DNA of 46,192 nucleotides from Propionivibrio sp. GTDB taxonomy: Bacteria; Pseudomonadota; Gammaproteobacteria; Burkholderiales; Rhodocyclaceae. Position numbers and translations under genes: made by a program. The stretch lies in contig NZ_JAGOIT010000015.1 of the NCBI RefSeq assembly GCF_017995515.1, forward strand, positions 1-46,192, written 5' to 3'. Positions within the stretch are counted from its first letter, which is position 1. Each line of letters opens with the position of its first letter. A model generated the notes under the pieces. The model was not told where the DNA came from. It saw nothing but the letters and a program-made list of their open reading frames with translations, and searched no databases. Of this stretch, positions 11,189 through 30,937 are shown piece by piece.

Positions 11189-11279
11189 AAAATCCCCCGG
11201 AATGGATGCAAAACGGCAATGGCTGGATTTTAGCGGCATTCCGGCGCACGCGGGCGGCCATGCCGGACAGGGGGGTCCG

Positions 11280-11285
11280 TATAAT
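11280..11285 (+). promoter_or_regulatory. Possible -10 element for the carbonic anhydrase gene
   Basis: A perfect TATAAT lies 64 bases upstream of the carbonic anhydrase start in the divergent gap. No good -35 box is seen at the right distance, so the assignment is tentative. Confidence 0.35.
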
Positions 11286-11349
11286 CGACGCGTCCTCGCA
11301 TTCCCGACGCCCGCCCTGGGCGTCCCAGACTCCAAGACCCGGATCCGCC

Positions 11350-12603
11350 ATGCGCCGCTTACTGCCCGTCGTGTTTTCACTCTCGCTGTTCCTATCCACC
11401 GGCGCGTACGCCGCCCAGTGGTCGCGCATCGCGACCAAGGACAAGGTGCGGCTCGAAGTCGACAGCGCAAGCGTCGTCAAAAGCGAAGACGGGAAGCTGA
11501 AGCTGTGGCATCGCGAGGTCCAGCCGGCGCCGAAGGTGCCCGATTCAGGCGCCTTCACCTTCATCCGCCGCACCCTGATGACCGAATTCAACTGTGAGAA
11601 GCGCACGACAACGCCGCTCCGGCAGATCCATACGGCACCGGACGGCAGCGAGCTGAAAGCCGAGACCTTCGATGGCGCCGAGGCGCAGCCGGTGCTGCCC
11701 GACTCGGCGATGGAGATCGTCTTCAACTACGCCTGCCGGCAAGCGAAAAATCCGGAGGCGAAGACGGAAGCCGCGAAGCCCGCCGAGGCGCCCCCCACCC
11801 CGGCGGCCACGGCCGAAGCCCCGGTCGCGGCGGCGGCCGCAGCCACCACGCCAGCGGTCGAAACGCCGGCCAGGAAACCGGCCAAGGGCAAGAAAGGCAA
11901 GGAAGAGCCGCCGCCACCGCACGTCACGCCGCACTGGAGCTACAGCGGCGCGAACGGCGCCGACAAGTGGGGCAGCCTGGACAACGAGTTCGCGACCTGC
12001 GGTATCGGGCAGCGGCAATCGCCAATCGACATCCGACGCACGGTCAAGGCCGACCTGCCGCCGATCCAGTTCGCCTACAAGCCAATCCCGCTATCGATTG
12101 TCGATAACGGACACAGCATCAAGGTCGACACGCCGGACGCCGGCGGCATCACGGTCGACGGCGAGAGCTACGAGCTCGTGCAGTTCCACTTCCACAAGCC
12201 GAGCGAGGAGAAGATCAACGGCAAGGCCTACGACATGGTCGTCCATCTGGTGCATCAGGCTAAGGGCGGCAAGCTCGCCGTCATCGGCGTGCTGATGGAA
12301 GCGGGCAAGGAGCAGAAGCTGATCCGCACACTGTGGACGCACCTGCCGCTGGAACAGGAAAAGCCGGTCGTGCGCGACGACGTGAAGATCGACCCGACGC
12401 AGCTCATCCCGCCGAAGCCGGGCTACTACACCTTCCTCGGCTCGCTGACGACGCCGCCGTGCTCCGAAGGCGTCCTCTGGCTGGTGATGAAGACGCCGAT
12501 CCAGGTATCGAAGGAGCAGCTGGCGAGTTTCGCCACCGTCTACAAGAACAACGCCCGCCCGATCCAGCCAACCAACGGGCGCGTGATCAAGGAATCGCGC
12601 TGA
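11350..12603 (+). CDS. Exported alpha-carbonic anhydrase with an N-terminal surface-adhesin-E-like domain
   Basis: The product is 417 residues. A signal peptide ends near AYA-AQW (about residue 21). Residues about 22-125 (starting QWSRIATKDKVRLEVDSAS) resemble the small adhesin-E-type domain of beta/gammaproteobacteria. A Pro/Ala/Lys-rich linker (about 125-190) follows. The alpha-carbonic anhydrase domain (about 195-415) starts HWSYSGANGADKWG and has QSPIDIRR, the zinc histidines in QFHFHKPSEE and VVHLVHQ, and the SLTTPPCSEGVLW signature. It should hydrate CO2 in the periplasm or at the cell surface. ATG 11350 is used because it gives a proper signal peptide; the longer frame from 11206 does not. 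It converges on livF with 9 bases between. The domain fusion is unusual, and the function of the N-terminal part is unknown. Confidence 0.9.
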   Translation: MRRLLPVVFSLSLFLSTGAYAAQWSRIATKDKVRLEVDSASVVKSEDGKLKLWHREVQPAPKVPDSGAFTFIRRTLMTEFNCEKRTTTPLRQIHTAPDGSELKAETFDGAEAQPVLPDSAMEIVFNYACRQAKNPEAKTEAAKPAEAPPTPAATAEAPVAAAAAATTPAVETPARKPAKGKKGKEEPPPPHVTPHWSYSGANGADKWGSLDNEFATCGIGQRQSPIDIRRTVKADLPPIQFAYKPIPLSIVDNGHSIKVDTPDAGGITVDGESYELVQFHFHKPSEEKINGKAYDMVVHLVHQAKGGKLAVIGVLMEAGKEQKLIRTLWTHLPLEQEKPVVRDDVKIDPTQLIPPKPGYYTFLGSLTTPPCSEGVLWLVMKTPIQVSKEQLASFATVYKNNARPIQPTNGRVIKESR

Positions 12604-17951: not shown

Positions 17952-18236
17952 ATGCCAACCACCACCATCCGCCTGCCGGATGATCTGAAAACCCGCATTG
18001 CGGCCGCAGCCAAACACGCCGGAACGACGGCTCATGGCTTCATTCTCGAGGCAATTATCGAGAAAGCAGAGCAAGCTGAACGCCGCGCCGATTTCGATGC
18101 CGTAGCGGAAAATCGCTATGCCGGCGTTGTGTCCACCGGGAAAACCATCCCGTGGCAGGAAATGCGCGTTTATCTGGAAGCGCGCATGGCCGGCAAGGCG
18201 ACGAAGCGCCCCGTTGCACGCAAACTGGCACGCTGA
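17952..18236 (+). CDS. Antitoxin, ribbon-helix-helix (CopG/ParD-like) family
   Basis: The product is 94 residues. The N-terminal ribbon-helix-helix is evident: TTTIRLPDDLKTRIAAAA, then AGTTAHGFILEAIIEKAEQ. The strand contacts DNA and the helices dimerise. The C-terminal half (YAGVVSTGKTIPWQEMRVYL, then a Lys/Arg-rich tail) should bind the toxin. ATG 17952 is where the fold begins. Its TGA overlaps the toxin ATG (TGATG), so the two are translationally coupled. The operator upstream supports autoregulation. Confidence 0.88.
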   Translation: MPTTTIRLPDDLKTRIAAAAKHAGTTAHGFILEAIIEKAEQAERRADFDAVAENRYAGVVSTGKTIPWQEMRVYLEARMAGKATKRPVARKLAR

Positions 18237-18547
18237 TGGCGTCTTGCATTGAGTTGGCGCCGGAGGTTGCGGAGGATTTCGATCGCATCCTCGATTATCT
18301 GGCCAGCCACGAAGAGGAAAATCCTGTGCAGCGCATTGGCGAAATCATTGCCGCTCTGGAAATTCTGGCGCAGAACCCGTTGATCGGTCGTCCGGTGGCA
18401 AATGCCAAGCGCGAACTGGTGATCGGCCGTCGTTCACATGGGTATGTCGCCTTGTATCGCTACGTACCCGAGATGGATGCGGTATTCGTGCTGGCGATCC
18501 GCAACCAGCGCGAAGCCGGCTACTCCGAACGCGACCCCGCCAGGTAA
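18236..18547 (+). CDS. Toxin, RelE/ParE superfamily
   Basis: The product is 103 residues, the standard length. It shows the ParE-type pattern: IELAPEVAEDFDRILDYLAS helix pair, ILAQNPLIGRPV with the conserved P-x-x-G-R, ELVIGRRSHGYVALYRYV strands, and FVLAIRNQREAGY at the C-terminus. It starts at the ATG overlapping the antitoxin stop codon; the longer frame from 18152 is an overlap with the antitoxin gene. It is probably a gyrase poison or mRNA interferase; the sequence does not decide. The pair lies between livK and the ferredoxin-oxidoreductase operon with no other mobile genes beside it. Confidence 0.88.
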   Translation: MASCIELAPEVAEDFDRILDYLASHEEENPVQRIGEIIAALEILAQNPLIGRPVANAKRELVIGRRSHGYVALYRYVPEMDAVFVLAIRNQREAGYSERDPAR

Positions 18548-18956: not shown

Positions 18957-21812
18957 TCACGCCAACCCGTGCTTCACCTTGCTTTCCTGCTCCTGCACCT
19001 TGAATAGCCCGAAGCGCGGCAGGAACTTGTCCCAGTCGATGATGTGGCTGTCGATTTCCGGGCCGTCGATGCAGGCGTGCTTGCGCACCATCTTGCCTTC
19101 GATGTTGACCGGCACCATGCACGCGCCGCACATGCCCGTCGCGTCGACCATGATCGAGTTGAGGCTGGCGACGGTCTTTACGCCATAGGGCTTGGTCAGG
19201 TCGCTCACCGCGCGCATCATCAACGGCGGGCCGATGGTGACGACTTCGGCGATGCTGCGGCCCTTGCTCGTCTTGCCGTTCTTGAGCATTTCCTCGAGCG
19301 GCGTGGTGACGAAGCCGTGCAGGCCGAAGCTGCCGTCGTTGCTACAGTAGATGAGATCGAGCTGGTCGCCGAATTCGGCCTTGAGCTGGCCCATGCGCTC
19401 GTCCTCGCCGACCCAGAACAGCAGGTTGGCGTTGCGGAAGCCCGAGATCAGCGTCACGTGGTTGCCGAGCCTGAGATGCTCGCGTGCGATCGGGTAGACG
19501 GGCGGCAGGCCGACGCCGCCGGCGGTGAAGACGACGGTTTCCTTCTCGGCATCGTACTGATGCAGTTCGCTCGGCTGCCCAAGCGGCCCGGCGATGCCGG
19601 TGAAGGCTTCGCCGATCTGCATCTTGTTGATGTTGAGGCTGGTCGTTCCCATGCCCTGCACGACGAGGCAGATGGTGCCGGCCTTGGCGTCCCAGTCGGC
19701 GAGCGTCAGCGGGATCAGTTCGCCGTCCGGCCAGGCGAGCACGCGCACGAACTGGCCGGCGCGCGCCGATTTGGCAATCATCGGCGCCTTGACGATGAAC
19801 TCGACGATGCCGCCGGCGAGTTCGATCTTGTCGACGATGGTCTGCGGCGTCGCGCCCATCTCGGTGTATTCGCGCGCCGTTTCGACCATGTGCGCGATCT
19901 GCTCGTGCGAAAGGTCGATGTCGCCGACGATCTCGCGCGCCGCGGCCTGGCCATCGCCGGCGGCGCGGATCGCCGTCGAACCGCCGCGCGCCGCATCGCC
20001 GCCCGAGTAGATGCCGTCGAGCGAGGTCTTCATCGACCCCTTGGTGGCGAGGTCGATGGTGCCCCACTTGGTCGTCTTGAGGCTCGGCTCCGAATCCTTG
20101 ATGATCGGGTTCGGGGCGTTGCCGAGCGCCATGATGACGAGATCGGCCTTCATCAGCTCCTTCTCGCCGGTGGCGACCGGACTGCGGCGGCCGGACGCAT
20201 CCGGTTCGCCGAGCGCGATGACTTCAAGGTTCGCCGCCTTGACGAAGTGCGTCTTGTCGTCGCCGATGAATTCGCACGGCGAGCGCAGCACCTTGAGCTT
20301 GATCCCCTCTTCCAGCGCGTGGTGCAGTTCCTCGACGCGCGCCGGCATTTCGCTCTGCGTGCGGCGATAGACGATGGTGACGTTGCCGCCGAGCCGGCGT
20401 GCCGTGCGCGCCGCGTCCATCGCGGTGTTGCCGCCGCCGATGATGATGACTTCCTTGCCCTTCGTCTCAGGCAGCGGCGTCTCGTAATCGGCGCGCAGCC
20501 CCTGCATCAGATTGACGCGGGTCAGGAACTCGTTGGCTGACATCACGTTGAGCAGGTGCTCGCCCGGCACGTTCATGAAACGCGGCAGCCCGGCGCCGGT
20601 GCCGACGAAGACTTTCCAGAAGCCGGCCGCACGCAGGTCCTGCAGCGTCGCCGTCTTGCCGACGACGAAGTTCTGCACGAACTCGCCGCCGAGCAGCTTG
20701 ATCTTGGCGACCACGTCGTCGATCAGCGAATTGGGCAGGCGAAACTCGGGAATGCCGTAGCGCAGCACGCCGCCGAGCGCGTGGAAGGCTTCGAACACCG
20801 TCACCGGGAAACCCTCGGCGGCGAGCAGGTAGGCGTTGATCAGACCAGCCGGCCCGGAGCCGACGATGGCGATCGGCGGCTTGACCGCACGCGCCCACGG
20901 ATCGGGCACGCTGGCAAAACGTTCGACCACGCCGTCCGGATTGACGACCTTCTCGCGCTGCGGCAGGAACCACTCCAGCTGGCCGATTTCGATCGGCTGC
21001 TTGGTGTGCGCGCAGACGCCCTGGCATTGCAGCTCTTGCGGGCAAACGCGGCCGGTGACGTTGGGCAGCGGGTTGCAGCTCTCGATCAGCTCCATCGCCT
21101 CGCGGAACTTGCCGTTACCCATCAGCTCCAGCACCTTCGGGATGTGGATCTTGACCGGACAGCCGCCCTTCGGATCGGCCTTGCCGGCGACGTGCAGGCC
21201 GATTTCGCAGGGACGCTCCTCGCACTGCTTGTCGCGCAGCACTTCGAGCCAGACGATGAGATCGACTTCGCGCGCGCTGTAGCCGAGGTTCATGTAGCCG
21301 AGGTAGCCCTGGTTCACCAGCTCGAAGTCCGTGGACCGCTCTTCGGGCGAACGGATGTACGGCGGGATGAAACTTTCCGCCGGCCAGCCTTCGGACAGCC
21401 CCTTGAACATCGGATAGCGCTCCGACAGATGCTGGTCAATGGCGCGCACGAACTTGCGCTTCAAGCCGAGCGGCACGTTCCAGACAAAGCGCATCAGCAC
21501 CTTGCTCGTATCGTCGTCGCGCAGCAGCAGACTCCAGAACGTCTTGATGAAATCTGCGCCGAGCTCGGGCTGTTTGAACTCCCAGACGATCGCGTTGGTG
21601 CCGTCGGCGATGAACATGTCGCGGAACGCCTGCGGGTCGGCAAGCAGCCGGCGCTGCAGGAGCGCCATCTGGTGGTGGAAGGTTTCGACCGCTTCCGATT
21701 CCTCGAGCGCCTCAAGCTGGGCCTGCGTGCTCTCCAGCGACTTGCCGGCATCGAGGTAACGGAAGAGGTCTTCCCGGCCGGCGGAACCGGCGTTGGAGTT
21801 GCCCGTGCTCAT
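18957..21812 (-). CDS. NfnB-NfnA-type fusion: FAD-dependent NAD(P)H:ferredoxin oxidoreductase
   Basis: The product is 951 residues. Residues 1 to about 210 are an extension of unknown fold. Next comes a GltD/NfnB-like part: the cysteine-rich cluster domain CNPLPNVTGRVCPQELQCQG (about 243-262), the FAD site IAIVGSGPAGLINAYLLA (about 313) and the second nucleotide site VIIIGGGNTAMDAARTARRL (about 456). From about 665 an NfnA-like part follows: a ferredoxin-NADP reductase fold, then the [2Fe-2S] motif GMCGACMVPV with a later Cys in KHACIDGP (about 892-912). In anaerobes separate NfnA and NfnB subunits bifurcate electrons between NADPH, NAD and ferredoxin; here both are one chain. The start overlaps the end of the upstream 2-oxoacid oxidoreductase gene by 4 bases, so they likely work as one complex. 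Whether it bifurcates is inference. Confidence 0.85.
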   Translation of the reverse strand: MSTGNSNAGSAGREDLFRYLDAGKSLESTQAQLEALEESEAVETFHHQMALLQRRLLADPQAFRDMFIADGTNAIVWEFKQPELGADFIKTFWSLLLRDDDTSKVLMRFVWNVPLGLKRKFVRAIDQHLSERYPMFKGLSEGWPAESFIPPYIRSPEERSTDFELVNQGYLGYMNLGYSAREVDLIVWLEVLRDKQCEERPCEIGLHVAGKADPKGGCPVKIHIPKVLELMGNGKFREAMELIESCNPLPNVTGRVCPQELQCQGVCAHTKQPIEIGQLEWFLPQREKVVNPDGVVERFASVPDPWARAVKPPIAIVGSGPAGLINAYLLAAEGFPVTVFEAFHALGGVLRYGIPEFRLPNSLIDDVVAKIKLLGGEFVQNFVVGKTATLQDLRAAGFWKVFVGTGAGLPRFMNVPGEHLLNVMSANEFLTRVNLMQGLRADYETPLPETKGKEVIIIGGGNTAMDAARTARRLGGNVTIVYRRTQSEMPARVEELHHALEEGIKLKVLRSPCEFIGDDKTHFVKAANLEVIALGEPDASGRRSPVATGEKELMKADLVIMALGNAPNPIIKDSEPSLKTTKWGTIDLATKGSMKTSLDGIYSGGDAARGGSTAIRAAGDGQAAAREIVGDIDLSHEQIAHMVETAREYTEMGATPQTIVDKIELAGGIVEFIVKAPMIAKSARAGQFVRVLAWPDGELIPLTLADWDAKAGTICLVVQGMGTTSLNINKMQIGEAFTGIAGPLGQPSELHQYDAEKETVVFTAGGVGLPPVYPIAREHLRLGNHVTLISGFRNANLLFWVGEDERMGQLKAEFGDQLDLIYCSNDGSFGLHGFVTTPLEEMLKNGKTSKGRSIAEVVTIGPPLMMRAVSDLTKPYGVKTVASLNSIMVDATGMCGACMVPVNIEGKMVRKHACIDGPEIDSHIIDWDKFLPRFGLFKVQEQESKVKHGLA

Positions 21813-24800
21813 CGAATGATCTCCGCGTCGCAGTTGGCCGACACCCGCTTGACGCGCGCCTTGAGCTCAGGTGTCGGCGTCACGCGCTCAAGGATGCCGG
21901 GGATCAGGCGCCCGACTTCGCGGCTCTCGCCATTGACGACGATGCGCGTCTTCTCAAAGAGCTCGGACAGATCCTGGTAGCAGGTCTTGCAGTTGGTGCA
22001 TTTCACCTGATCGGCCTCGTCGTACGTGACAAGCGCATCGGCCGTCGCTGTCGCCGCAGCCGGCGCATTGGCGGCAGGCGCGGCACCGGAGACCGGCACG
22101 ATCGGGATCGTGACGCCGTTGCCGACCTGCGCCTTGCTCGACGCCGCCAGCTCCGACATGGCGCGCGCAAAGCTGTCGATCGACGAGTCGCGCTGCTTCA
22201 TGCCGTCCTGCACCTGTGCCTTCAGCGCGGCGATGCCGGCCTGGTATTCGGCGCTCATCTTCGAGACGTGCTGGCCGGCGAGGTATTGCAGCAGATGCCA
22301 GTACTTGCGCCGTTCCTCGACGAGCGCAACGACCGAAGGCGAGACACGCAAACGAATCAGACGCTTCTTGCTGTCGGCCGAGTAGATGAACGGCGTCTTG
22401 CCGGCGCGTTGCGACTCGTGCAGATCGATGAACTCGTCGATCGGAACCAGTCCTGCCTCGTTGCCGTTGAGCTTGCTGAACTGCTTCTTGAAGCGGATTT
22501 CGCCGAGCGCGAAGTGCGCCGGCGTCAGCGCCATCGTCATCAACTGCAGCTCGCCTTCGGCGTCGAGGTATTCGAGCGAGGTGCTGCTCCAGGTCTGCTC
22601 GGGATCCGGGTTGCCGTCAAGCGAGAACCACTCGTGCAGCGTCTTGCCGCGCCGCGGGTCATGCACGAACACGGGGTTCATCCGGCTCTCGACGGCCAGG
22701 CGCGACTGGCGCGCCGAGATGTTGTCGGCGATCCCGTGCTCGCCCTGGCACGGCGTATAGACGTCGAGCACGGCGGGCGAGTCGGTATAGGAGAGGAACT
22801 CCATCGTGTTCTTGAGGAAGTGCCCCTGCAGCGCGGTGCTCGTCGAGCAGACGAAGACGTTGGAGTGGAAGGAGGCGATCAGACCGAGCTCCTTGCGCGC
22901 CTCGTGCTTGCCGGAGGACGCTGCGCCGACGCGCGCCAGATCCGAATCCTGGCCGATGAAGCTCGACGTCGACGCCTGCCCGCCGGTATTCGAGTAGGCT
23001 CCGGTGTTAAGCACCAGCACCTTGATCGGCGTGTCGCTCGCCAGGATGCGCGAGAGCGCGCCGAAGCCGATGTCGTAGGTCGCGCCGTCGCCGCCGATCG
23101 TCATCACCGTCGGCATGAGCGCGATTTCCTCTGCCGTGAAATCCTTCCACTCGAGCATGCGCAGCGCCGGTTCCTGTTCCTCGGGAACGTACGCGTCCTC
23201 CAGTTCCAGGCGGGCGACGCGCAGCGCGCGCACGTCGGCGACCATCTGCGCCGAGATGCCTTCAAAGATGCCCTTGGCCAGCGGTTGTGCGTCCTGGAAG
23301 AGGCTGTTCACCCACGGATCGTTGTAGGCATTGAACGGGAAGGTCGAGGCATAGACGCTGCTGCAGCCGGTCGAGTTGGCGATCACCGCGCCGGCCGGGC
23401 CGTTGCCGGTCGGGCCGCTCTCGTAGAGGTAGAGCCGTTTTTCCAGCGTCGCGATCAGTTCGCCAATGCGCTGGCCGCGCGCCGCGTCCTTCTTGCCGAG
23501 CGTCGCCTGCTTCGCGCCGAGGTCGGCGATCAGTTGTTCGAGTTCGGCGATGTGCTCGTGCCGCCGCTTGTCGGTGATCGCGTGGTTGGTCGCCATCACG
23601 AGACGGATGGCCGTCACTTCGCCGCAGCCGCGACAGCCGCCGTGACCGCCGGTCGTCGAGTAGTAGTTGGAGCGGTCGAGCAGCAGGCGCTTGATCTCGC
23701 CGCCCGGTTCGATCGCGTCGTCAACGAAGCGCGCCGGCGTGTTCGGCAGCTTGCTCATGAAGTCGAAGCGCTGCTGCAGGGTCGACAGCAGCGCCGCGTC
23801 CTGTTCGTGCGGGACGAGCGCCTTCGGGCCGCAGACATCGACGCACTCAAGACAGCCCGTGCACTTCCACGGGTCGATATTGGCGGCAAACAGCCCGCCC
23901 GTACCGGCGACGGATTTCTCCATCGCGTCGAAGAACGGCCGCGTCTTGGCGACCGGATAGGTAGCCAGCACGTCGACCAGTTTGGTGAAGTTACCAAGCA
24001 GCGTCGCCTGCCGCGTCGTAATCCTGGCGGCGGCTTCGGCGACGAGCTCATGGAAGGCGCGCGGCGTCTTGCTCTGCCGGTACGCTTCGCGCACGGCTTC
24101 GGTCACACCGAAGATCTGACCGCGCATCGCTTCGCGTTGGGCCTCGGTGATGTCGAGCGTGTCGATGGCGGTGAGCAGCAGTTCGTGGATGTCGTGCACC
24201 GAATTCGGGATCGCCGCATCCGGGCAGACCAGCGCGCATTCCATGCAGCCGGTACAGACGTCGGGGTTGAAGATCGGCACGGCGCGCCGGAACAGCCCCT
24301 TGTCTTTCGCTCCGGCGGTGCCGGCCGGCATGAAGAGGCCGGTGCCCGGCAGCACCGGCGCTTCGCCAATCGTGCCTTCGCGGAAAGGCTTGGCGACCAT
24401 TTCCTCGAAGTACTCGCGGTCGAACATGCCGCCGCAGGCCGACGAACCGCCCGGCTGGCACATCGCCGCCGACAACGAGGCGTTATGCAGGGTAATCGGC
24501 GCCGGCCGCGCGTCAATCTTCTTGAACGCCGCGGCGCTGTAGTCGACGCGCGTCGTCGACTGCAAGCCTTCGCGGATCACGGCCATATTGCCTTCGACGA
24601 CCGCTGCGCCCTTGGCGCCGAACTTCTTGGCGATCTGCTTGCCGATCTTCTCGAGGATCGCGTCGGCCGAGGCGCCGGCGGCGACCTGCCGGACATGCCC
24701 GGCGACGGCGCCGATGAAGGCGATGCCCATCATGCGCGTCGCCAGTTCGGCCGATGGCGCGTTGCGCTTGGCGACACCGAAGGCGTCGATGATGAAGAAG

Positions 24801-26803
24801 TTGATGTTCTTCTCGCGGATCGTCTTGCGCGCCGCCGGCGGCAGTTCGGTCCAGACTTCCTCGGGCGTGGCGTTCGACTGCATGATGAAGGTGCCGCCCT
24901 CGGCCAACCCGCGTAGCGGATTGGTGTGGCTGAACGCGCGGTGGTCAGGCGAGATGACGACCTCGACGTCCTCCAGTTCGGCGTTGGTGATCTTGATCGG
25001 CTCGGGCGAGAGCGTGATGTAGAAGTTGGTCGGCGCGCCGCTCTTCTCGGAACCGTACTTCGGCGCCGACTTCGAGTGCATGTCGAGCACGCCGGCGAGG
25101 ATGTCGGTCAGCAGCTTGCCCGAGGCGATCGTGCCGTAGCCGCCGACCGAATGGAAACGCACGCGGAAGGCCGAGTCCGGCAGCAGGCGCGGGTTGTCTC
25201 CCGTTTCGAGCGCCATCAGCTCGGTCGCCGGATACGCTTCGCGCAGCCGCTTCTGCAGCTCGGCCATGCGCGGCGACGGGCTCTTGGAGAAGAACTGCGA
25301 GCCGAGGTAGATCAGCGGTGCGCTGCTGCCCTGGCCTTCCATGTTCTTGAACGCAGCGATCAGGTGGCGCGGCTGCAGGTCGTGTCCGCCGAGACCGAAG
25401 ATCGCGGTGGTCAAACGCGGCATCGTCTTGATCGCCGGGATGCCTTCGTGGCGCATCTGACTCGCGTTTTCGCAGCCCTTGAACAGCGCCTGCGTCACCA
25501 GCGTAGTCAGTGCGGTCTGCTCGGAACGCTCAAGCACGGTGACGGCCTTCTTGCCCTTCAGCGCAGCGACGACTTCCGCCTCCGGGAAGGGCTGCAGCAG
25601 CTTGATCGAGACGACGCCGACCTTCTTGCCCTGGCTGCGCAGATGGGTGACGACCGCTTCGACGTCGTCGGTCACCGAACCGAGGCCGACCATCACCATC
25701 TCCGCGTCGTCGCACATGAAGGTATGGACCGGCGAATACGTGCGACCGGTCAGCGCCGAGTATTCATCCATGGCCTGACGCACGAGGCCCGGCACTTCGC
25801 TGACGAAGTGCGTGCGGTGGTCGGCCGAGCCGGCCTGGAAGTCCGGCTGGTTCTGCACCGCGCCGGTGAGGCCCGGATTGTTGATGTCGACCTGTGCCGG
25901 CACCAGCTGGCGCGTGCCCTTTTCGAAAGAATTGAGCCACTGCCGCCGCCACTGACCGTGCAGCTCCTCCGGCAGCCAGGCGAGCGTCTTGGCGACCAGT
26001 TTGCCTTCGTTGTCCTTCTCGATCTTTTCGCCGTTGGTGGCGAGGAATTTCTTCAGCGCGGCGAGGTTGGTCGGCGTGATGTCGCTATCGCGCCGCATCA
26101 GGTACTGCGACAACTGAAATACGCGCCCCTTGGAACCAAACAAAACTTCCTGTGCCAAAGTCGGCGCCTTGATACGTCCGGCCGGGTCGCCGAGGTATTC
26201 GCGCAACAGCTCGGGTTCGGGCATGCGCGCCTCGCTCATCATGTGGCTGGTGGCAAAACCGTCCATCGCATTGGCGACCGGGATCAGCGAGAGCGCCGAG
26301 ACGCGGTAGGAAATCGCCGCCAGGTCGGCCGCTTCCTGCGGGTTCGAGCCGAAGAGGATGGTGTAGCCGGAGGAAAGCAGCGCGTAGACGTCGTCGTGTC
26401 CGGCCATCACGTTGAGCGAGTGCTTGGAGACGACGCGTGCGGCCACCTGCAGCACGAAGCCGCCGACCTTCTTGCCGACCGTCACATAGTGCGATTCGAG
26501 CGCGTACAGGATGCCCTGGCTCGACGAGGCGTTCGAGACGAACTGGCCGCCGGTCAGCGTCGCGCCGAGCGCGCCGCTCTGCGCCGAATGCTCGCCCTCG
26601 GGCTCGAAGAAGAACGGGTGCTTGCCCCAGACATTGACGCCGCCTTCGGCACGGAACGCTTCATAGATCTCGGCGATCTCGGTCGATGGCGTGATCGGGT
26701 AGCCGATGACGCCGCCGCAGACGTTGCTCATGACGTGCGCCACCGCGCCGTTGCCGTGGATGACGCTGGAGATGCCGGGATATTTCACTTTTGAGGCTTT
26801 CAT
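21809..26803 (-). CDS. Giant pyruvate:ferredoxin oxidoreductase-like 2-oxoacid oxidoreductase
   Basis: The product is 1664 residues, versus about 1170-1230 for ordinary NifJ/PFOR. Domains in order: pyrimidine-side domain with YPITPSTEIAE and the catalytic-Glu region FEPEGEHSAQSGA; domain II; gamma domain with FHSVGGYGTIASGKLL; two [4Fe-4S] motifs, CTGCMECALVCP (about 848) and CTGCLECVDVCGP (about 980); and a TPP domain with GGHGGCRGCGE (about 1052), STGCSS, GGDGATYDIGFGAL (about 1236) and NTGAYSNTGGQAS. Cysteines for the proximal cluster appear complete. Extra parts are an insert after domain I, a coiled-coil-like insert in the TPP domain (about 1075-1120) and a C-terminal tail of about 300 residues with CTNCKTC (about 1600) and a final Cys. 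ATG 26803 was chosen over a TTG at 26836. It likely oxidises pyruvate or another 2-oxoacid to acyl-CoA, or runs in reverse; substrate unknown. Confidence 0.88.
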   Translation of the reverse strand: MKASKVKYPGISSVIHGNGAVAHVMSNVCGGVIGYPITPSTEIAEIYEAFRAEGGVNVWGKHPFFFEPEGEHSAQSGALGATLTGGQFVSNASSSQGILYALESHYVTVGKKVGGFVLQVAARVVSKHSLNVMAGHDDVYALLSSGYTILFGSNPQEAADLAAISYRVSALSLIPVANAMDGFATSHMMSEARMPEPELLREYLGDPAGRIKAPTLAQEVLFGSKGRVFQLSQYLMRRDSDITPTNLAALKKFLATNGEKIEKDNEGKLVAKTLAWLPEELHGQWRRQWLNSFEKGTRQLVPAQVDINNPGLTGAVQNQPDFQAGSADHRTHFVSEVPGLVRQAMDEYSALTGRTYSPVHTFMCDDAEMVMVGLGSVTDDVEAVVTHLRSQGKKVGVVSIKLLQPFPEAEVVAALKGKKAVTVLERSEQTALTTLVTQALFKGCENASQMRHEGIPAIKTMPRLTTAIFGLGGHDLQPRHLIAAFKNMEGQGSSAPLIYLGSQFFSKSPSPRMAELQKRLREAYPATELMALETGDNPRLLPDSAFRVRFHSVGGYGTIASGKLLTDILAGVLDMHSKSAPKYGSEKSGAPTNFYITLSPEPIKITNAELEDVEVVISPDHRAFSHTNPLRGLAEGGTFIMQSNATPEEVWTELPPAARKTIREKNINFFIIDAFGVAKRNAPSAELATRMMGIAFIGAVAGHVRQVAAGASADAILEKIGKQIAKKFGAKGAAVVEGNMAVIREGLQSTTRVDYSAAAFKKIDARPAPITLHNASLSAAMCQPGGSSACGGMFDREYFEEMVAKPFREGTIGEAPVLPGTGLFMPAGTAGAKDKGLFRRAVPIFNPDVCTGCMECALVCPDAAIPNSVHDIHELLLTAIDTLDITEAQREAMRGQIFGVTEAVREAYRQSKTPRAFHELVAEAAARITTRQATLLGNFTKLVDVLATYPVAKTRPFFDAMEKSVAGTGGLFAANIDPWKCTGCLECVDVCGPKALVPHEQDAALLSTLQQRFDFMSKLPNTPARFVDDAIEPGGEIKRLLLDRSNYYSTTGGHGGCRGCGEVTAIRLVMATNHAITDKRRHEHIAELEQLIADLGAKQATLGKKDAARGQRIGELIATLEKRLYLYESGPTGNGPAGAVIANSTGCSSVYASTFPFNAYNDPWVNSLFQDAQPLAKGIFEGISAQMVADVRALRVARLELEDAYVPEEQEPALRMLEWKDFTAEEIALMPTVMTIGGDGATYDIGFGALSRILASDTPIKVLVLNTGAYSNTGGQASTSSFIGQDSDLARVGAASSGKHEARKELGLIASFHSNVFVCSTSTALQGHFLKNTMEFLSYTDSPAVLDVYTPCQGEHGIADNISARQSRLAVESRMNPVFVHDPRRGKTLHEWFSLDGNPDPEQTWSSTSLEYLDAEGELQLMTMALTPAHFALGEIRFKKQFSKLNGNEAGLVPIDEFIDLHESQRAGKTPFIYSADSKKRLIRLRVSPSVVALVEERRKYWHLLQYLAGQHVSKMSAEYQAGIAALKAQVQDGMKQRDSSIDSFARAMSELAASSKAQVGNGVTIPIVPVSGAAPAANAPAAATATADALVTYDEADQVKCTNCKTCYQDLSELFEKTRIVVNGESREVGRLIPGILERVTPTPELKARVKRVSANCDAEIIR

Positions 26804-28868: not shown

Positions 28869-29762
28869 TTACAGCAGCGACTTCAAGAGCTTGCCCATTT
28901 CCGACGGATTGCGCGTCACCTTGAAGCCGCACGCTTCCATGATCGCCAGCTTGGCCGCCGCCGTGTCGGCGCCGCCGGAGATCAGCGCGCCGGCGTGGCC
29001 CATGCGCTTGCCGGCCGGGGCGGTGACGCCGGCGATGAAGCCGACGACCGGCTTCTTCATGTTGGCCTTGCACCACTGCGCGGCGTCGGCCTCGTCCGGG
29101 CCGCCGATTTCGCCGATCATGATCACGGCATCGGTCTCCGGATCGTCATTGAACATCTGCATGACGTCCTTGTGTTTCAGGCCGTTGATCGGGTCGCCGC
29201 CGATGCCGACGGCCGACGACTGGCCGAGGCCGATCTCGGTGAGCTGGGCGACCGATTCGTAGGTCAGCGTGCCGGAGCGCGAGACGACGCCGATACGGCC
29301 CTTCTTGTGAATGTGGCCGGGCATGATGCCGATCTTGATTTCGTCCGGCGTGATGAGACCTGGGCAGTTGGGGCCGAGCAGCAGCGTTTCCTTGCCGCCG
29401 GCGGCGATCTTCGCGCGCATCTTGCTGCGCAGTTCGAGCATGTCGCGCACCGGGATGCCTTCGGTGATGCAGATGGCCAGGTCGAGGTCGGCTTCGACCG
29501 CTTCCCAGATCGCCGCGGCGGCGCCGGGTGGCGGCACGTAGATGACGGAGACGGTGGCGCCGGTCTGCTGCGCGGCTTCCTTGACCGTACCGTAGATCGG
29601 GATGCCGAAGATGGCTTCGCCGGCCTTCTTGGGATTGACGCCGGCGACGAAGCAGTTCTTGCCGTTGGCGTATTCCTGGCATTTCTCGGTGTGGAACTGG
29701 CCGGTCTTGCCGGTGATGCCCTGGGTGATGACCTTGGTGTCCTTGTTGATGAGAATCGACAT
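28869..29762 (-). CDS. sucD: Succinyl-CoA synthetase, alpha subunit
   Basis: The product is 297 residues, the normal length. It contains the CoA-binding start [52 protein letters not shown] and the phosphohistidine region [19 protein letters not shown]. With SucC it interconverts succinyl-CoA and succinate with ATP or GTP formation in the TCA cycle. It starts 14 bases after sucC and is followed by a strong terminator, so it ends the operon. Confidence 0.97.
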
Positions 29763-29776
29763 GTTCTTTGGCTCCC

Positions 29777-30933
<1,157 letters not shown>

Positions 30934-30937
<4 letters not shown>

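What the first reader, a model, noticed from the sequence alone, without database searches (positions are those of the whole stretch)
18957..26803. Two-gene unit: giant PFOR-like enzyme overlapping a fused NfnB-NfnA flavoprotein
Seen: a 1664-residue 2-oxoacid:ferredoxin oxidoreductase with intact TPP and Fe-S motifs overlaps by 4 nt a 951-residue chain with two nucleotide sites in a GltD-like half plus a ferredoxin-reductase half ending in a [2Fe-2S] motif. Known: Nfn complexes couple NADH, NADPH and ferredoxin by electron bifurcation, normally as two subunits; PFOR makes or uses reduced ferredoxin. Inference: the pair is one complex that links 2-oxoacid oxidation (or reductive carboxylation) directly to NAD(P)H. 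This would suit a denitrifying or aromatic-degrading betaproteobacterium needing low-potential electrons.
Basis: partly seen in the sequence, partly recalled or inferred. Interest (0 to 1): 0.78.

Follow-up and report, generated by a model that had tools for sequence, protein, structure and literature searches.

The report
Pyruvate enzyme wired to Nfn transhydrogenase
Two overlapping bacterial genes, found side by side in several bacterial groups, appear to make an oversized pyruvate-oxidising enzyme carrying its own tethered ferredoxin, which probably hands electrons straight to a fused flavoprotein that makes NADPH.

Summary
A 1664-aa PFOR-like enzyme (26803-21809, minus) overlaps by 4 nt a 951-aa fused Nfn chain (21812-18957). 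Catalytic, Fe-S, FAD and NAD(P) motifs are largely intact. The Nfn chain fits the uncharacterised 'Pattern C' fused Nfn of Liang 2019 (NCBIfam PRK12779).

The pair is conserved: 64 of 69 non-redundant close PFOR relatives with sequence beyond the stop have the Nfn fusion directly downstream.

It goes with the Nfn: 12 of 12 Nfn-bearing genomes in one sampled order carry tailed, adjacent PFORs, and the tail-less copies have no Nfn beside them. Parsimony gives three real tail losses, all without adjacent Nfn; one locus keeps the tail without Nfn. A distant giant-PFOR clade with the same tail lies inside rnf operons.

Best reading: a dedicated pyruvate-to-Nfn electron module, roughly pyruvate + CoA + NADH + 2 NADP+ -> acetyl-CoA + CO2 + NAD+ + 2 NADPH. 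Complex formation, substrate and stoichiometry are inferred. The proposed denitrifying or aromatic setting was not tested.

The parts
21809..26803 (-). Giant PFOR-like 2-oxoacid (probably pyruvate) oxidoreductase, 1664 aa
   Evidence: ORF; Pfam POR_N/PFOR_II/POR; PDB 6cin E 9e-88; Foldseek 6cin E 2.4e-28 for residues 465-1664
18957..21812 (-). Fused Nfn chain, 951 aa, L (NfnB/GltD-like) half then S (NfnA) half
   Evidence: NF009415 1801 bits, residues 11-951; 5jca_L and 5jca_S by sequence and by fold, TM-score on target 0.83 and 0.88
21809..21812 (-). 4-nt ATGA start/stop overlap of the two genes
   Evidence: ATGA with the Nfn frame in register in 40 of 64 pairs, with any of ATG/GTG/TTG 47 of 64
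23831..24256 (-). Two CxxCxxCxxxC motifs (C850-C860, C981-C991) of the medial and distal 4Fe-4S clusters
   Evidence: all eight Cys 88 of 88
22958..23110 (-). TPP-binding core (residues 1232-1282) incl. N1272
   Evidence: PF02775; N1272 88 of 88
23420..23620 (-). Helical-hairpin insertion (about 1062-1128) between proximal-cluster Cys 1060 and 1147
   Evidence: AF2 model
22019..22153 (-). Disordered Ala/Pro-rich linker (about residues 1551-1595)
   Evidence: pLDDT about 30-50
21812..22018 (-). C-terminal single-cluster [4Fe-4S] ferredoxin domain (1596-1664; C1602, C1605, C1608, C1658)
   Evidence: Cys 83 of 88; tail profile to ferredoxin 7m1o E 4.8e-8; pLDDT about 82; window tail alone is below the Pfam cut-offs
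21222..21773 (-). N-terminal all-helical extension of the Nfn chain (14-197), no known family
   Evidence: AF2; residues 1-195: no Pfam match, no PDB sequence match
21159..21233 (-). Altered 4Fe-4S motif D194-x2-C197-x4-C202-(variable loop)-C218-P
   Evidence: D194, C197, C202, C218 invariant in 32 of 32; canonical form CxxCxxxxCxxxCP seen in L146
19929..21167 (-). NfnL-like half (216-628): FAD and NADP(H) sites
18975..19841 (-). NfnS-like half (658-946): FAD, NAD(H), [2Fe-2S] with D890, C895, C898, C914
   Evidence: NF004862 above its cut-off; these residues invariant in 32 rows

Best explanation
The pair encodes a dedicated electron-transfer module. Shown from sequence: the large chain is a pyruvate:ferredoxin oxidoreductase-type enzyme with a complete catalytic core and cluster chain, plus a single-cluster ferredoxin domain on a linker predicted to be disordered. 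The second chain is a fused Nfn with both FAD sites, an NADP(H) site, an NAD(H) site and Fe-S motifs, one of them altered. Inferred: pyruvate oxidation loads electrons through the three core clusters onto the tethered ferredoxin domain. That domain swings to the Nfn entry cluster. The Nfn then confurcates with NADH to make NADPH (pyruvate + CoA + NADH + 2 NADP+ -> acetyl-CoA + CO2 + NAD+ + 2 NADPH). Potentials recalled, not computed here, make this close to reversible in the cell, so pyruvate synthesis driven by NADPH is possible in some hosts. The tether would remove the need for a diffusible ferredoxin in facultative organisms.
For: Adjacency: 64 of 69 clade-1 PFOR loci with at least 300 nt after the stop. 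In the genus all 19 Nfn-bearing genomes have it beside the PFOR; the other two of 21 PFOR-bearing genomes are cut at contig ends. In the phylum sample 9 of 398 genomes have the fusion and the same 9 have the close PFOR. Nfn-led control: 12 of 297 genomes of one order, and all 12 have the giant PFOR. Tail-Nfn linkage: seven genomes of that order with only a tail-less PFOR had no Nfn match at E <= 1e-150; G1061 holds a tailed copy beside an Nfn and a tail-less copy elsewhere. The tree implies three real tail losses. Tail is a ferredoxin. Clade 2 with the same tail sits in rnf operons. Branch lengths agree: Mantel r 0.934, 0 of 2000 permutations.
Against: No physical or kinetic evidence. The Mantel test is not corrected for the organism tree, and 10 pairs of strongly supported splits conflict between the two trees. 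L134 has the tail but no Nfn nearby, nor a good match in its genome. Clade 2 tails exist without Nfn, so the tail is not Nfn-specific. The genome of tail-less L096 has a different Nfn-type fusion elsewhere (44% over the L half). The first 4Fe-4S motif of the Nfn half lacks one canonical Cys, which might alter or abolish that cluster. The window's own tail scores below Pfam cut-offs. The host also has aceE (pyruvate dehydrogenase) and pntA, so the unit is not its only route. The Nfn-led Actinobacteria sample gave 0 of 396.
Confidence: 0.7

Rival explanations
1. A non-bifurcating pyruvate:NADP+ oxidoreductase: the Nfn chain only passes ferredoxin electrons to NADP+ (or NAD+), like eukaryotic pyruvate:NADP+ oxidoreductase (PNO, recalled).
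For: Liang 2019 warns that Nfn homologues may be bifurcating or not and that sequence alone cannot tell (section 14 read). The 4Fe-4S motif is altered.
Against: Motif residues of both flavin/nucleotide halves and the Asp beside the [2Fe-2S] cysteines (Nfn-type ligand, recalled) are invariant in 32 of 32 rows, more than a simple reductase needs.
Confidence: 0.4
2. Reductive use: NADPH-driven bifurcation feeds pyruvate synthase (acetyl-CoA + CO2 -> pyruvate), for acetate assimilation in the phototrophic members.
For: Purple bacteria are among the carriers (Rhodopseudomonas, Rhodoplanes, Rhodopila). PFOR is discussed as a pyruvate synthase in purple bacteria (PMC8307300, passages).
Against: Many carriers belong to groups I recall as fermentative (Mobiluncus, Actinotalea fermentans, Propionibacteriaceae), where oxidation is expected.
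Confidence: 0.25
3. The substrate is another 2-oxoacid, not pyruvate.
For: TIGR02176 is far below its cut-off; identity to solved PFORs in the fold alignment is only about 18-21%.
Against: T38, E71, R123 and N1272 match D. africanus PFOR residues recalled as substrate/TPP-binding. The best and longest hits are to pyruvate enzymes, ahead of oxalate and other oxidoreductases.
Confidence: 0.15
4. Co-regulated neighbours only: the two proteins share soluble ferredoxin and do not form a complex.
For: No physical evidence; the tail domain also occurs without Nfn (L134, clade 2).
Against: Tail and adjacent Nfn are absent together in three lineages, and the paralogues of G1061 differ accordingly.
Confidence: 0.25

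Closest known systems
Pattern C fused Nfn (Mobiluncus curtisii type; Liang 2019, PMC6405883) = NCBIfam PRK12779/NF009415
   Same: Single chain, about 200 aa longer than other fused Nfn, S half at the C-terminus, in Actinobacteria and Proteobacteria. M. curtisii (L097) is itself in this set, with the giant PFOR upstream.
   Different: No partner or role is given for it in the passages and sections read. The Figure 2 legend lists PFOR near some nfn; the figure is not held, so prior sight of this adjacency cannot be excluded.
NfnAB / NfnI (5jca, 4ylf)
   Same: Both halves match by sequence and fold.
   Different: Two genes, nfnA then nfnB; here one chain in the order L then S, with a helical extension, Asp in place of the first 4Fe-4S Cys, and a PFOR partner.
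Homodimeric PFOR (6cin, 1b0p)
   Same: Domain order, TPP site and the three core clusters.
   Different: About 430-490 aa longer, with insertions, a linker and a ferredoxin tail.
Eukaryotic pyruvate:NADP+ oxidoreductase (recalled; one search was a listing only, no paper on it opened)
   Same: PFOR coupled directly to NADP+.
   Different: There a cytochrome P450 reductase-like domain is fused (recalled); here a separate Nfn chain able in principle to confurcate.
Rnf-linked giant PFOR (clade 2: L062-L064, L135-L139, L141, L143, L144)
   Same: 36-38% identity in the ten full-length rows, same ferredoxin tail.
   Different: Gene lies between an rnfB-like gene and rnfC instead of beside nfn.

Membership tests
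PFOR (2-oxoacid:ferredoxin oxidoreductase superfamily) | POR_N, PFOR_II, POR domains, TPP site and three 4Fe-4S clusters | tested here: met
PFOR, NifJ equivalog TIGR02176 | score above curated cut-off | tested here: not met
   421.7 against 911.35 bits
PFOR | pyruvate as substrate | not testable with these tools
   residues consistent, activity untested
Pattern C Nfn / PRK12779 | full-length NF009415 match above cut-off; L half then S half | tested here: met
   1801 against 1519 bits, residues 11-951
Nfn (bifurcating) | two FAD sites, NADP and NAD sites, [2Fe-2S] with Asp ligand, two 4Fe-4S clusters | tested here: inconclusive
   flavin/nucleotide motifs, D890 and Cys conserved; one 4Fe-4S motif has Asp for Cys; the Asp ligand role is recalled
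Nfn (bifurcating) | electron-bifurcating activity | not testable with these tools
   none

The most novel reading that the evidence does not exclude
Giant PFORs form a modular family with a built-in, tethered ferredoxin. One clade plugs directly into a fused Nfn for pyruvate-to-NADPH confurcation without soluble ferredoxin, and its sister clade plugs into Rnf for direct pyruvate-driven ion pumping.
Probability: 0.4. Interest if true: 0.78.

Novelty: new variant of a known kind. Interest (0 to 1): 0.62.

Why it matters
Pattern C Nfn has been flagged in print as uncharacterised, with the M. curtisii protein placed at the base of one Nfn tree (PMC6405883, PMC6085437; passages and sections). This work gives it a partner, a probable electron donor and a testable docking element. 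If right, it is a prokaryotic pyruvate:NAD(P) machine in which the low-potential carrier is covalently held, useful for understanding facultative anaerobes and for redox engineering.

Tried and rejected
A role in PHA storage (Accumulibacter-type NADPH supply) was my first idea and was dropped. Class I PhaC passes its cut-off in 1 of the 21 giant-PFOR-bearing genomes of the genus and gives no match in the window's own genome, but passes in 5 of the 7 genomes without the PFOR. This contrast may be phylogenetic.

The guess that the second carrier genus was Competibacter was wrong: a contig-length match (41343 bp) points to a Magnetococcales MAG.

Replacement of the membrane transhydrogenase was not supported: pntA passes the cut-off in 22 of 28 genomes including the host.

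FNR box: sites with at most 1 mismatch lie within 400 nt upstream in 14 of 89 loci against 0.64 expected from mononucleotide shuffles, mainly Alphaproteobacteria and partly close relatives. The window's own best site has 3 mismatches, so it says nothing for this host.

Wider operon context for clade 1: ten neighbours in eight loci differ and give no shared function; three of the ten had no Pfam match. No Rfam family and no tRNA was found in the window. Actinobacteria sample led by the Nfn: 0 of 396, so the unit is patchy there; the tool warns that an empty answer without a positive control shows nothing. Only the best two candidates per genome were scored in the large samples. The joint structure of the two chains could not be predicted.

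Rows dropped or corrected: in the 69-locus count 4 loci have neither tail nor Nfn. One of them, L070, is a broken frame in the assembly with Nfn sequence downstream by tblastn. L065 (contig end) and L070 are not counted as real tail losses, although they raise the raw parsimony count to 5. L079 ends 278 nt after its PFOR and was outside the 69; its genome has the Nfn fusion on another contig. Pieces shorter than 1540 aa, such as L056 and L064, were not in the 88-row alignment. The 66 rows of the Mantel test include duplicate records of the same genomes. A first count of start/stop overlaps (52 of 64) ignored the Nfn frame and was replaced by 40 of 64 ATGA in register.

Full report
What is there. 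On the minus strand a 1664-aa PFOR-like gene (ATG at 26803, stop 21809) overlaps by 4 nt a 951-aa gene (21812-18957). Pfam finds the PFOR core and 4Fe-4S domains in the first, and Fer4_20, Pyr_redox_2 and a DHODB-type [2Fe-2S] domain in the second. The second is a nearly full-length match to NCBIfam NF009415/PRK12779 (1801 bits, cut-off 1519). For the first, none of the 25 models shown of 32 passes its cut-off (TIGR02176, 421.7 against 911 bits). Solved relatives are PFOR 6cin and 1b0p for the first and NfnI 5jca (L and S) for the second. AlphaFold models agree: residues 465-1664 of the PFOR match 6cin (E 2.4e-28), and the two halves of the Nfn chain match 5jca_L and 5jca_S with target TM-scores 0.83 and 0.88.

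Integrity. Over 88 full-length PFOR rows the residues aligned with D. africanus Thr31, Glu64, Arg114 and Asn996 (role recalled; alignment) are conserved without substitution, and the 12 core cluster cysteines are invariant. Over 32 Nfn rows many flavin and nucleotide motif residues and D890, C895, C898 and C914 of the [2Fe-2S] site are invariant. One departure is systematic. The canonical CxxCxxxxCxxxCP motif, seen in another Nfn fusion (L146), is here D194-x2-C-x4-C-variable loop-C-P in 32 of 32 rows. The chain also has an all-helical N-terminal extension with no Pfam or PDB sequence relative.

A tethered ferredoxin. The PFOR ends in helices to about residue 1554, a low-confidence linker (pLDDT about 30-50) and a confident small domain, 1596-1664, with CxxCxxC...C. 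A profile of 15 such tails finds single-cluster ferredoxins (7m1o, E 4.8e-8; FdI 1dax, E 4e-4). The two clade 2 tails tested pass Pfam Fer4_13; the window tail alone and that of L083 stay below the cut-offs.

Who has it. In the genus sample 21 of 28 genomes carry the close PFOR; 19 also show the Nfn beside it, and the other two are cut by contig ends. In 398 genomes of the phylum, 9 have the Nfn fusion and the same 9 have the close PFOR (59% or better); two further genomes have only a distant giant PFOR. Matching contig lengths put records titled Propionivibrio sp. and Accumulibacter sp. in the window's genus. After removing duplicates 72 of 82 full-length loci belong to clade 1 (50% or more identity to the window protein). 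Of the 69 with at least 300 nt after the stop, 64 have tail and Nfn, 1 (L134) has the tail only and 4 have neither, L070 among them being a broken assembly frame. In 40 of the 64 pairs the genes share an ATGA overlap with the Nfn frame in register, as in the window; 47 of 64 if GTG or TTG starts are allowed.

Tail and Nfn go together. An Nfn-led search of 297 genomes in the order of Pleomorphomonas found 12, and all 12 carry the giant PFOR. In 11 it is a full tailed copy directly adjacent. In G1061 the tailed end lies beside the Nfn on a short contig (the rest of that copy probably on another), and the Nfn's own frame is broken. A PFOR-led search of 279 genomes of the order found 19: those 12 and 7 with only a tail-less PFOR. 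By handle numbering these 7 were also, where they gave no Nfn at E <= 1e-150. G1061 also holds a tail-less second copy; none of the eight tail-less copies fetched with their surroundings (12-13 kb) has the Nfn there. Mobiluncus curtisii (L097) has both tail and Nfn, M. mulieris (L127) neither. On a tree of PFOR cores the real losses fall in three places: a clade of eight with the Pleomorphomonas and Rhodospirillum-titled copies, the G1061 second copy, and M. mulieris. PFOR and Nfn distances correlate (Mantel r 0.934, 66 rows, 0 of 2000 permutations), without correction for the species tree and with 10 conflicting pairs of strong splits.

A sister clade wired to Rnf. Giant PFORs at 36-38% identity keep the ferredoxin tail but have no Nfn in their loci. 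In 11 of 11 such loci an RnfB-like gene lies directly upstream, and in 10 of 11 rnfC and other rnf genes lie downstream; the eleventh ends with its contig (gene names from Pfam on L143, carried over by blastp). The giant PFOR thus travels with a ferredoxin-oxidising converter in both clades.

Mechanism. Shown: the parts and their linkage. Inferred: electrons pass from pyruvate through the core clusters to the tethered ferredoxin, then to the Nfn chain, and with NADH reduce NADP+; the reverse may serve pyruvate synthesis. The altered 4Fe-4S motif sits in the part of Nfn where I would expect ferredoxin to deliver electrons, so it may be an adaptation to the tethered donor; that is speculation. 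The host also has aceE and pntA and no class I PHA synthase match, so a conditional, probably anaerobic role is likelier than a housekeeping one (inference).

Literature. The fused chain fits 'Pattern C' of Liang et al. 2019 (PMC6405883: passages and sections 6 and 14 read), described there as uncharacterised; its Figure 2 legend names PFOR near some nfn genes, figure not seen. Poudel et al. 2018 (PMC6085437, passages) place the M. curtisii protein earliest in Nfn. R. palustris AadN (PMC9973337, passages) is called a Pattern B protein and is different. None of the papers they listed describes the giant PFOR-Nfn or PFOR-Rnf pairing in its title or the shown start of its abstract. The lists were capped, cover open-access text only, and most hits were not opened, so this is not proof that it is unpublished.

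Noticed in passing
window 17952-18547, + strand: Between the Nfn gene and the liv transporter genes two small overlapping ORFs read like a ribbon-helix-helix antitoxin and a RelE/ParE-type toxin (judged by eye, no family search).
   Followed up: no
L143:692-10971 and ten similar loci: Giant PFOR gene embedded in an rnf operon between rnfB-like and rnfC; possibly a pyruvate-driven Rnf.
   Followed up: partly
window 28869-30937, - strand: succinate-CoA ligase genes (sucC, sucD) upstream, separated from the PFOR by a PAS-GGDEF gene.
   Followed up: no
window 11206-12603, + strand: 465-aa ORF combining an Adhesin_E-like part with a eukaryotic-type carbonic anhydrase domain.
   Followed up: no
L045:14207-15826 (minus) and genes beyond: In L045 (G005) a GltD-like Fe-S flavoprotein lies upstream of the giant PFOR; one search places further POR-type matches within about 4-7 kb of it in four genomes (G004, G005, G012, G026), perhaps a second nucleotide-linked OFOR cluster.
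   Followed up: partly
L178:678-3053, L187:603-2993 (minus): Tail-less PFORs in two tested loci lie divergent from feoB (ferrous iron uptake), and five tail-less loci have near-perfect FNR-type sites 112-119 nt upstream.
   Followed up: partly
genus sample G000-G027: Giant PFOR presence and class I PHA synthase are almost mutually exclusive in the genus (PhaC over cut-off in 1 of 21 with the PFOR, 5 of 7 without).
   Followed up: partly
G450 (genome of L096), C78:37110-39308, L146: A second type of fused Nfn (S half first) in the genome of a tail-less PFOR, on another contig; it might serve as a soluble-ferredoxin partner.
   Followed up: no
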